Part shown: in pieces, positions 9,083-18,735 of the stretch
How positions within the stretch are numbered: position 1 is the first letter of the stretch
How the letters are laid out: every line of letters begins with the position of its first letter
Assembly (NCBI GenBank): GCA_944320775.1
Contig: CALUIV010000024.1
Span: 1-47,977, forward strand
Length of the DNA stretch: 47,977 nucleotides
Origin: an uncultured Paraprevotella sp.
Lineage (GTDB): Bacteria; Bacteroidota; Bacteroidia; Bacteroidales; Bacteroidaceae
Direction: 5' to 3'
Position numbers and translations under genes: made by a program
Notes under the pieces: generated by a model
Database searches by the model: none
What the model was told of the DNA's origin: nothing
What the model saw: only the letters and a program-made list of their open reading frames with translations

Positions 9083-10105
<1,023 letters not shown>

Positions 10106-10167
10106 TTAAAAATTAAAGGTTAGAATATAAGTTATTTCTCTCAATCTTATGTAAAGCTGACCGCCTG

Positions 10168-10257
10168 TCAGCCACAGTTACAAGTATGAGCCGCTCCACA
10201 AGACATCAGCAGAACAGCTGACAGAACTATTATACTAATGTAACTTGTAAGTCTCAT
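10168..10257 (-). CDS. 29-residue Cys/His-rich lipoprotein upstream of gap
   Basis: A short reading frame (ATG at 10257, TGA ending at 10168) that I do not recognise as a named family. It begins with MRLTSYI, continues with a hydrophobic stretch and ends with the lipobox-like VLLMSCG; cleavage before Cys20 would leave the ten-residue lipidated peptide CGAAHTCNCG, with Cys, His, Cys, Cys in a possible metal-binding spacing. AAGGAAA precedes the ATG and TAAATTTG (10285-10278) is a consensus -7 box, leaving a leader of about 17 bases. It lies between guaA and gap, both on the minus strand, and should be co-transcribed with gap. The same bases hold inverted repeats (TTACAAGT/ACTTGTAA and CTGTCAG/CTGACAG) in a crossing arrangement, so an RNA role is the alternative. 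Confidence 0.6.
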   Translation of the reverse strand: MRLTSYISIIVLSAVLLMSCGAAHTCNCG

Positions 10258-10277
10258 TTTCCTTGTTTTTATCACTG

Positions 10278-10285
10278 CAAATTTA
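10278..10285 (-). promoter_or_regulatory. -7 box for the small lipoprotein and gap
   Basis: Minus-strand TAAATTTG matches TAnnTTTG perfectly. No good -33 element is seen. It is the only convincing promoter between guaA and gap. Confidence 0.6.
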
Positions 10286-10343: not shown

Positions 10344-10367
10344 GATGGGAATCTTTTTTATTCCCAT
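10344..10367 (-). terminator. Possible terminator overlapping the guaA stop codon
   Basis: ATGGGAAT (10345-10352) pairs with ATTCCCAT (10360-10367) around a 7-base loop; the guaA stop codon lies in the loop and 3' arm. The T-rich tract that follows on the minus strand is interrupted, so termination may be weak and some read-through into the gap leader is possible. Confidence 0.4.
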
Positions 10368-11881
10368 TCAATTGTTGAAGGTGGTTTTGAGGAGATATCG
10401 TAACATACTCGGTTCACTCCTCTTACTTTATTAATAATGTCATTACTTACTTTTGCCATAAATTCATAAGGCAGATGAGCCCAGTCGGCCGTCATTGCAT
10501 CCGTACTTGTCACCGCACGCAAGGCTACAGCTCGCTCATAAGTACGCTCGTCACCCATGACACCGACGCTTTTTATTGGCAACAAAATGACACCAGCCTG
10601 CCATACCTGATCATACAAGCCCCAATCACGCAAACCTTGAATGAAAATATCATCAGCATCCTGAAGAATCCGCACTTTTTCTGGAGTAATATCACCCAAA
10701 ATACGAACGGCAAGACCCGGACCCGGGAATGGGTGACGTGTAATCAAATGCTCTGGCATACCCAACTGACGTCCTACACGACGCACTTCGTCCTTGAAAA
10801 GCCACTGCAAAGGTTCGCACAACTTCAGATTCATCTCTTCTGGCAGTCCGCCTACGTTATGATGACTTTTGATCGTCTTACCGGTAATATTCAAACTTTC
10901 AATACGATCCGGATAAATTGTTCCTTGCGCCAACCATTTGGCATCTGTAATTTTATGTGCTTCAGCATCAAATACTTCAATAAAATCACGGCCAATAATC
11001 TTACGTTTTTGTTCAGGATCGGTAACACCTTCCAAATCCTTGAAGAACTTTTCACTGGCATCAACACCGATTACGTTCAGTCCAAGACATTCATAATCAT
11101 GCATTACATTCTTGAACTCATTCTTGCGCAACATACCATGATCCACAAAAATACAGGTCAAGTTCTTGCCAATTGCCTTATTCAACAATACGGCCGCAAC
11201 AGAAGAATCCACACCGCCGCTCAAACCAAGAATTACCCGGTCATTGCCCAACTGTGCCTTCAATTCTGCAACAGTAGTATCAACAAATGAAGCTGCACTC
11301 CAATCCTGTTTACCGCCACAAATATCAACGACAAAATTCTTCAATAAAAGAGTTCCTTGCACTGAATGGAAAACTTCCGGATGGAACTGAACTCCCCATA
11401 ACTGCTCTCCTTCTGCCTGGTATGCGGCATTAACCACCTTATCAGTAGAAGCTATCACCTTAAAATGTTCTGGAAGGGCTGTAATGGTATCACCATGACT
11501 CATCCAAACCTGAGAATGCTCATCAAATCCCTTAAACAAAGGATTCTCATGATCAAAGCTCATCAGATTTGCACGTCCATATTCACGACTTGCAGCCGGC
11601 TCAACCTTTCCACCCAATGCATAACTCATATACTGAGCTCCATAGCAAATACCCAAAATCGGATATTTTCCACGAATCTCATTCAGGTTGATTTTAAAAG
11701 CACTTTCATCATAAACACTAAAAGGCGAACCGCTCAAAATAACACCAATGACAGACGGATCATCTTTCGGAAATTTGTTATACGGAAGGATTTCACAAAA
11801 CATATCCAACTCACGAACGCGACGTCCGATAAGCTGTGTTGTCTGTGAACCAAAATCCAGAATAATAATTTTCTGTTGCAT
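10358..11881 (-). CDS. guaA: GMP synthase (glutamine-hydrolysing)
   Basis: Converts XMP to GMP using glutamine and ATP; the last step of de novo GMP synthesis, cytoplasmic. It is 507 residues. The class I glutamine amidotransferase domain covers residues 1-190, with nucleophile Cys in [10 protein letters not shown] and the His/Glu pair in GVQFHPEV. The ATP pyrophosphatase domain has the PP-loop [13 protein letters not shown] near residue 220, and the C-terminal dimerisation domain ends with KPPSTIEWE, as expected. It has its own promoter and looks like a single-gene transcript. The 3' end overlaps a hairpin. Confidence 0.98.
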
Positions 11882-18663: not shown

Positions 18664-18735
18664 ATAAAAAAAAGAAGGTTGTCATCTCGACAACCAATCT
18701 TTAATTAACCTTAAATCTAATACCATGAAAAACAC
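18664..18735 (-). ncRNA. Small RNA with own promoter and terminator
   Basis: Downstream of the rlmI-like gene, on the same strand, a consensus -7 box (TACCTTTG, 18747-18740) is followed by about 72 bases ending in a textbook terminator: GGTTGTC, loop GAGAT, GACAACC (18695-18677), then TTCTTTTTTTT. The body starts near GTGTTTTTCATGG and includes ATTAGATTTAAGG. A short RNA bounded by a TAnnTTTG promoter and a terminator is how the Bacteroidales-1 RNA motif is described, so that family is the first candidate, but I cannot confirm the match. It could also be the 3' end and terminator of the rlmI-like transcript. Confidence 0.5.

What the first reader, a model, noticed from the sequence alone, without database searches (positions are those of the whole stretch)
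10168..10285. Unlisted 29-residue Cys/His-rich lipoprotein in the gap leader
Seen: a complete short frame with a consensus -7 box, an AAGGAAA before the ATG, a hydrophobic signal, and a lipobox-like LMSC. The predicted mature peptide CGAAHTCNCG has four potential metal or redox ligands in ten residues and follows a glycolytic promoter. Its bases also hold two inverted repeats whose order (CTGTCAG 10165, TTACAAGT 10178, CTGACAG 10218, ACTTGTAA 10243) would permit a pseudoknot. Inference: either a tiny surface or periplasmic lipopeptide, or a leader that couples gap expression to an RNA structure; conservation would separate the two.
Basis: partly seen in the sequence, partly recalled or inferred. 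Interest (0 to 1): 0.72.

Follow-up and report, generated by a model that had tools for sequence, protein, structure and literature searches.

The report
Tiny cysteine lipoprotein beside glycolytic gap
A 29-residue frame in front of the glycolysis gene gap is a real, conserved gene for what looks like a tiny membrane-anchored peptide in bacteria of the order Bacteroidales; its function is unknown but testable.

Summary
Minus-strand frame 10168-10257 encodes MRLTSYISIIVLSAVLLMSCGAAHTCNCG. A profile hit 88 of 301 genomes of the window's family. Of 87 short frames extracted, 87 end Cys-Asn-Cys-Gly-stop and 76 lie 39-287 nt upstream of gap. The other 11, all one genus, stand divergent from mscL; 10 of them face the tail of gap, so they cannot be gap leaders. 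A shorter cousin (commonest mature form CATPCGC) in six other families was upstream of gap in 11 of 11.

Selection acts on the protein: pN/pS 0.21-0.30 in frame, 1.03-1.94 in the other two frames. The finding's inverted repeats are fully paired only in the window (1 of 77). One five-sequence sub-clade shows another leader RNA fold, so a dual role there stays open.

Best reading: a secreted lipopeptide of 7-11 residues, co-expressed with GAPDH and acting in trans, whose invariant chemistry is a lipidated Cys plus a C-terminal Cys-x-Cys. The biochemical role (thiol exchange or metal binding) is inference. No Pfam or NCBIfam family was matched above its cut-off.

The parts
10278..10285 (-). promoter -7 element TAAATTTG (TAnnTTTG; consensus recalled, not from a call)
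   Evidence: TAnnTTTG within 70 nt upstream of the start in 68 of 76 gap-leader members (63 of these at 28-33 nt); shuffle expectation 4.7 of 76.
10258..10264 (-). AAGGAAA, ribosome-binding-like sequence directly before the ATG
   Evidence: Not a general feature: SD-like words within 16 nt of the start in 24 of 87 members.
10168..10257 (-). 29-codon micro-lipoprotein gene including stop
10201..10257 (-). signal peptide, residues 1-19 (hydrophobic core; lipobox LMS before the Cys)
   Evidence: residue -1 is Ala or Ser in 77 of 77; strict lipobox [LVI][ASTVI][GAS]C in 43 of 77.
10171..10200 (-). predicted mature lipopeptide CGAAHTCNCG, residues 20-29
   Evidence: Cys20, Cys26, Asn27, Cys28, Gly29 invariant in 77 of 77; 10 further rows of genus g22 have one extra residue.
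10094..10167 (-). 74-nt spacer to gap, no terminator-like hairpin found
   Evidence: Its last part matches same-genus genomes with and without the frame.
9083..10093 (-). gap (glyceraldehyde-3-phosphate dehydrogenase), downstream gene and the constant neighbour
   Evidence: Named from its sequence.
10358..11881 (-). guaA (GMP synthase), upstream neighbour here; mscL in 52 of 87 relatives
   Evidence: Named from its sequence.
10165..10171 (.). inverted-repeat arm A3' (partner 10218-10224); not conserved
   Evidence: 7/7 pairs in 1 of 77, the window itself.
10218..10224 (.). inverted-repeat arm A5'; not conserved
10178..10185 (.). inverted-repeat arm B3' (partner 10243-10250); not conserved
   Evidence: 8/8 pairs in 1 of 77, the window itself.
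10243..10250 (.). inverted-repeat arm B5'; not conserved

Best explanation
The frame is a genuine gene for a micro-lipoprotein, here the first gene of a transcript shared with gap. Shown: it is conserved and selected as protein, it stays beside gap, and it has a signal-peptide-like start, an invariant lipobox-type Cys and an invariant C-terminal Cys-x-Cys. Inferred from established lipoprotein biology: Lgt lipidates the Cys and LspA cleaves before it, leaving a lipid-anchored peptide of 7-11 residues (CGAAHTCNCG here) facing the periplasm. Inferred and weaker: its working part is the Cys-x-Cys dithiol, acting in trans as a membrane-tethered thiol/disulfide exchanger, with thiol metal binding the next best role. 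Sitting behind the gap promoter would supply it steadily and in step with glycolytic gene expression. I put the translated, trans-acting lipoprotein gene at about 0.85 and thiol exchange as its role at about 0.35; the score below is for the first part together with some dithiol-based role.
For: Profile hits in 88 of 301 family genomes. Of 87 short frames in 11 genera, 76 lie 39-287 nt upstream of gap on the same strand. Invariant residues use alternative codons: TGC/TGT 46/31, 39/38, 45/32; AAT/AAC 58/19; four Gly codons; three stops. pN/pS 0.21 over 119 within-genus pairs; 0.22 and 0.30 in frame against 1.03-1.94 in the other two frames. In 11 genomes of one genus the frame is not upstream of gap: 11 of 11 diverge from mscL, 10 of 11 face the tail of gap, 11 of 11 are followed within 250 nt by a terminator-like hairpin, and the protein is still selected (0.22). 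Five same-genus genomes without the frame keep the promoter and the stretch before gap. In four genera the frame stands before both closely and distantly related gap genes. Independent cousins in six other families: 11 of 11 followed-up short frames with a lipobox-type Cys and C-terminal CxC are upstream of gap; 5 of them had built the profile, 6 were new.
Against: No expression or mass-spectrometry data were seen. Only 43 of 77 fit the strict lipobox. The gene is absent in many genomes: 12 of 18 in the window's own genus, and 213 of 301 in the family had no hit. TAnnTTTG is found before the frame in only 1 of 11 convergent cases, so its promoter there is unknown. One five-sequence sub-clade has a leader RNA fold beyond shuffles with 7 two-sided pair changes. 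The one probe of a disulfide partner was uninformative: VKOR in 0 of 6 same-genus genomes with the peptide and 3 of 12 without. The dithiol role rests on residue conservation alone.
Confidence: 0.7

Rival explanations
1. Cis-acting leader peptide: translation of the frame, or stalling at its C-terminal CNCG-stop, controls gap downstream; in some clades together with an RNA fold.
For: Position between promoter and gap in 76 of 87; invariant residues at the very C-terminus; a leader fold in five g21 sequences (E -29.9; 0 of 80 region shuffles as good; 62 pairs, 7 with two-sided change, though one of the five breaks much of the outer helix and two are nearly identical).
Against: The protein persists where it cannot lead gap. 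No terminator-like hairpin lies between frame and gap in 75 of 76, so classical attenuation is unlikely. Spacers run from 39 to 287 nt. Gap leaders without the frame exist in the same genus. A conserved lipobox Cys and hydrophobic core are not needed for such a leader. In the other sets tested the full leader did not clearly exceed region shuffles (35, 14 and 3 of 80 as good; the last is the three-sequence set with the window).
Confidence: 0.13
2. Pseudoknot or hairpin switch built from the two inverted repeats of the finding, the frame being accidental.
For: The repeats are perfect in the window and fold mildly better than shuffles.
Against: Fully paired in 1 of 77 for each arm pair, the window itself. 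Against shuffles that keep every amino acid, the coding part shows no excess structure in five of six sets; g21 was matched by 6 of 100.
Confidence: 0.02
3. Lipid-anchored thiol metal ligand (copper or zinc buffering) rather than a redox exchanger.
For: Cys-x-Cys is invariant, and His, Glu or Asp stands two residues before it in 71 of 77 (37, 32 and 2).
Against: His itself is only 37 of 77 and the CATPCGC cousins have no His. No metal-transport gene was seen to be linked, though this was not searched for.
Confidence: 0.2
4. Small hydrophobic membrane toxin or lysis peptide.
For: Size and hydrophobicity resemble such peptides (recalled; not tested).
Against: Placement behind the gap promoter; conservation of Cys and CxC rather than of the hydrophobic part; one short frame per genome, in the mscL/gap region.
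Confidence: 0.04
5. Secreted signalling peptide or pheromone derived from a lipoprotein precursor.
For: Some lipoprotein precursors yield pheromones (recalled; not tested).
Against: The signal-peptide part, source of such pheromones, is the least conserved part; no receptor gene is a constant neighbour.
Confidence: 0.04

Closest known systems
Small bacterial lipoproteins such as entericidins (recalled)
   Same: Signal peptide, lipobox Cys, very short mature part.
   Different: Mature part here is 7-11 residues with a C-terminal CxC, and the gene stays beside gap. No Pfam or NCBIfam match above cut-off in the sequences scanned.
Bacteroidales 'CPAY' small lipoproteins of about 45 aa (name is mine)
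   Same: Same order, short signal peptide, Cys about 6 residues after the lipobox Cys.
   Different: Longer tail, usually not beside gap: of 29 new loci fetched, two lay by gap, and one of these (L125) is of the CPAY type, so a common origin is possible.
Leader peptides and regulatory upstream ORFs
   Same: Short frame between promoter and a metabolic gene.
   Different: Retained out of leader position in one clade, no attenuator-like hairpin in 75 of 76, selected as protein.
Synthetic Cys-x-Cys peptides that mimic protein disulfide isomerase (recalled; nothing read)
   Same: A minimal Cys-Gly-Cys or Cys-Asn-Cys dithiol.
   Different: Here genetically encoded and predicted to be lipid-anchored; activity untested.

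Membership tests
Bacterial lipoprotein | Signal peptide with hydrophobic core ending in a lipobox and an invariant Cys | tested here: met
   Cys 77 of 77, Ala/Ser at -1 in 77 of 77, hydrophobic core; strict lipobox only 43 of 77, mostly because of Met or Phe at -3.
Bacterial lipoprotein | Lipid modification and cleavage by Lgt and LspA | not testable with these tools
   Needs mass spectrometry.
Surface-exposed Bacteroidetes lipoprotein | Export signal K-(D/E)2 or Q-A-(D/E)2 near the Cys (PMC5080379, passages); S-(D/E)3 also tried, recalled | tested here: not met
   0 of 87.
Curated protein family | Match above the curated cut-off in Pfam or NCBIfam | tested here: not met
   4 sequences in each library and 6 more in NCBIfam; only weak matches below cut-off.
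Transcription-attenuation leader | Terminator between leader frame and structural gene | tested here: not met
   1 of 76 spacers has a terminator-like hairpin.
Cis-regulatory leader peptide | Frame conserved only where it precedes the regulated gene | tested here: not met
   11 members of genus g15 are not upstream of gap and stay under selection.
Cis-regulatory leader RNA | Conserved RNA structure with covariation | tested here: inconclusive
   The finding's repeats: not conserved. Coding part: no excess in five of six sets. Full leader: an excess in one sub-clade of five sequences, not clear in three other sets.
CxC thiol-disulfide exchanger | Conserved Cys-x-Cys | tested here: met
   CNC in 87 of 87 family members, CGC in 11 of 11 cousins; both sets were partly selected by profile.
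CxC thiol-disulfide exchanger | Redox activity | not testable with these tools
   Needs biochemistry.

The most novel reading that the evidence does not exclude
A Bacteroidales family of exceptionally small lipoproteins: lipid-anchored peptides of 7-11 residues whose sole active part is a C-terminal Cys-x-Cys, made from the glycolytic gap promoter and kept beside gap through gene replacement and inversion, serving as a membrane-tethered thiol/disulfide cofactor that ties envelope redox or metal state to glycolytic capacity.
Probability: 0.3. Interest if true: 0.82.

Novelty: new variant of a known kind. Interest (0 to 1): 0.62.

Why it matters
A conserved gene family appears to have escaped curation because it is only 24-31 codons long and looks like a 5' leader. 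It would push the lower size limit of lipoproteins and link a central glycolytic gene to the cell envelope in common gut bacteria. It also shows how a natural inversion can tell a 'leader ORF' from an independent gene.

Tried and rejected
RNA structure. The finding's repeats were checked in 77 relatives. Consensus folds against simple column shuffles gave low z-scores in some sets: g11 ORF -9.5, g21 (gap about 72%) full leader -4.9, g21 ORF -2.1, g22 full -2.2, g30 full -2.5. For the coding part these are explained by the amino acids in five of six sets (g21 6 of 100). For the full leader, shuffling within regions removed the g30 signal and left g22 (14 of 80) and the three-sequence set with the window (3 of 80) weak, but the g21 sub-clade stayed strong (0 of 80). 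I looked at it and do not explain it away.

All four residues as metal ligands: rejected, since the first Cys would be lipidated and the His is not conserved.

Disulfide partner VKOR in the genus: 0 of 6 with the peptide, 3 of 12 without; uninformative.

Wider spread. 198 class-level genomes: no CNCG hit outside the window's own genome at E 1e-4. Of 135 order-level genomes with gap, the leaders of the 40 highest-ranking other than the window's were read; 4 of 40 held a lipobox-plus-CxC frame, and three more frames flagged by the crude filter (L231, L252, L265) were judged chance. Order-level hits of the CNCG profile (183 of 393 genomes at E 0.01) were mostly signal peptides of longer frames: of 29 new loci fetched, 2 lay by gap and 14 were translated.

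Literature. Ten searches; nothing in their listings describes this peptide. Only passages were read of PMC13376575, PMC7324362 and PMC5080379. Subscription papers and supplementary small-protein catalogues were not searchable, so an earlier listing there is possible.

Rows dropped. Of 90 places listed, three in long frames were left out before extraction (G073 800 aa, G288:C51 489 aa, G241:C48 101 aa). Of 32 places, 12 were followed up; the other 20 lie in frames of 135 aa or more. In one search, 11 of the 12 are counted; the twelfth (G303) has a longer tail and no gap nearby. In some searches the position relative to gap was not checked for genomes not already.

Errors on the way. One search translated several minus-strand loci on the wrong strand; corrected. 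Distances to gap printed are about 4 nt too long; those are used.

Full report
WHAT IS THERE. The frame is on the minus strand. TAAATTTG is at 10278-10285, AAGGAAA at 10258-10264, ATG at 10257, stop at 10170-10168; gap begins 74 nt later at 10093. The product is MRLTSYISIIVLSAVLLMSCGAAHTCNCG. Upstream on the same strand is guaA, 10358-11881 (gap and guaA are named from their sequences). The window is contig C24 of a 2.8-Mb genome. A same-genus genome, G001, has a contig of the same length as the Paraprevotella clara record NZ_JH376605.1 and an identical gap leader, so the genus is very probably Paraprevotella.

CONSERVATION IN THE FAMILY. A search with the 29 residues found short frames in many genomes. 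A profile of 26 of them (A1) hit 88 of 301 family genomes at E 1e-4. Three of 90 listed places lie in long frames and were dropped; 87 short frames from 87 genomes in 11 genera remain. All 87 end CNCG-stop. The profile was built from such sequences, which favours that result, but codon usage is independent evidence. In the 77 rows with a ten-residue tail the three Cys codons split 46/31, 39/38 and 45/32 between TGC and TGT, Asn 58/19; Gly uses four codons and the stop all three. Ten rows of genus g22 have one extra residue. Within-genus pairs give pN 0.11 and pS 0.51, ratio 0.21, over 119 pairs. With a slightly wider cut the ratios are 0.30 (upstream members) and 0.22 (the convergent clade), against 1.03-1.94 in the other two frames. 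The gene is common but not universal: 6 of 18 genomes in the window's genus, 37 of 45 in g15 (13 of 14 high-quality genomes), 83 of 121 in g11 (14 of 16 high-quality).

LINK TO GAP. In 76 of 87 the frame is upstream of gap on the same strand, 75 of them within 150 nt and one at 287 nt. The gap genes there have 44-100% identity to the window's over the matched part: 32 at 84% or more, 14 between, 30 below 60%. Genera g11, g15, g20 and g22 contain both the high and the low group. The upstream neighbour is mscL (divergent) in 52 of 87, guaA on the same strand in 3, a divergent guaA-like gene in 11, and not identified in 21. So the pair persists while the gene on either side changes.

THE DECISIVE CASE. 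The 11 members that are not upstream of gap all belong to g15. The frame diverges from mscL in 11 of 11. In 10 of 11 gap lies just downstream on the opposite strand, tail to tail; in G111 no gap was seen within the fetched stretch. A terminator-like hairpin follows the frame in 11 of 11, against 1 of 76 spacers in the usual arrangement. The searched stretch was longer in the first set (250 nt against the spacer), and the hairpins of G111, G190 and G078 are weaker or farther off. gap has its own TAnnTTTG element in 9 of 9 readable cases. The frame is still selected as protein (0.22), so it cannot work only as the leader of gap. A loose end: TAnnTTTG stands before the frame in 68 of 76 usual cases but in 1 of 11 here, so the promoter in this clade is unknown.

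SPECIES WITHOUT IT. Five same-genus genomes lacking the frame (L085, L086, L088, L089, L090) keep the promoter and the stretch just before gap. gap evidently does not need the frame in these species.

WIDER FAMILY. Among the gap leaders of 40 order-level genomes, four held another micro-lipoprotein ending CGC or CGCN. A profile of these plus one (A2) was run over 393 order-level genomes. Twelve of 32 listed places were followed up: 11 are short frames with lipobox-type Cys and CxC end in six families, all 51-188 nt upstream of gap; five of them had built the profile and six were new. The commonest mature form is CATPCGC (6 of 11), seven residues. In 198 class-level genomes the CNCG profile found only the window. 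The shared minimum is a lipidatable Cys and a C-terminal CxC.

RNA. The finding's inverted repeats are fully paired in 1 of 77 sequences for each arm pair, the window. Simple column shuffles suggested structure in several sets. For the coding part, shuffles that keep every amino acid matched the observed energy in five of six sets; g21 was matched by 6 of 100, and the 77-row consensus forms no structure. For the full leader, shuffling within regions left nothing in g30 (35 of 80), little in g22 (14 of 80) and a weak hint in the three-sequence set that includes the window (3 of 80, no two-sided changes). In the five g21 leaders before the 72% gap type, however, it left a strong signal (0 of 80, 62 pairs, 7 with two-sided change). 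That fold pairs the start region with the end of the frame and includes spacer hairpins; one sequence (G243) breaks much of the outer helix and two are nearly identical. It is not the finding's structure, but it speaks for a lineage-specific RNA role beside the protein.

HOW IT MOST LIKELY WORKS. Shown: a conserved coding gene with a signal-peptide-like start, an invariant Cys at the lipobox and an invariant CxC end, kept beside gap. Established knowledge: such a Cys is lipidated by Lgt and becomes the N-terminus after LspA cleavage. Inferred: a lipopeptide facing the periplasm, since the export signal for the surface (PMC5080379, passages) is absent in 87 of 87. With the first Cys lipidated and His in only 37 of 77 rows, the one constant chemistry is a dithiol. 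I commit to a membrane-tethered thiol/disulfide exchanger as the likeliest role (about 0.35), metal binding next (about 0.2). Why gap: a strong promoter tied to glycolysis is the simplest answer; a direct need for GAPDH is possible and untested. The single partner test, VKOR within the genus, was uninformative.

AGAINST WHAT IS KNOWN. No Pfam or NCBIfam family was matched above cut-off, and ten literature searches listed no description. It meets the sequence features of a lipoprotein, though the strict lipobox only in 43 of 77, and fails the features of an attenuation leader.

LIMITS. All evidence is comparative. Named records that hold the frame are L015, L020, L034, L036 and L055, metagenome-assembled by their titles. 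None of the calls could say whether public annotation already lists the gene.

Noticed in passing
window 18665-18735 (-): Rfam match to the Bacteroidetes small RNA family FopS (RF04319, 84.6 bits, gathering 56), the only Rfam match of the window.
   Followed up: no
L153-L227, genera g11, g15, g20, g22: Within single genera the gap gene behind the same micro-lipoprotein frame is either close (84% or more) or distant (below 60%) to the window's, which suggests replacement of gap in place.
   Followed up: partly
L173, L179, L183, L184, L189, L191, L197, L210, L214, L216: In ten g15 genomes gap points the other way, tail to tail with the frame that usually precedes it.
   Followed up: partly
L156, L162, L117, L119, L121 (genus g21): A leader RNA fold spanning the start region, frame and spacer exceeds shuffles and shows two-sided pair changes.
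   Followed up: partly
L125, L126, L130, L131, L137, L139, L142, L148, L151, L152: Small lipoproteins of about 40-60 aa with CPAY or CAAY after the lipobox, in several families; only L125 is beside gap.
   Followed up: no
L011 and L076: Paludibacteraceae gap leaders with longer Cys-rich lipoprotein-like frames; L076 has two in tandem.
   Followed up: no
L272 (G359): Two gap genes in tandem behind a CGC-type micro-lipoprotein.
   Followed up: no
G001, G011, G017: VKOR-domain proteins occur only in same-genus genomes that lack the peptide (3 of 12 versus 0 of 6); too few to interpret.
   Followed up: no
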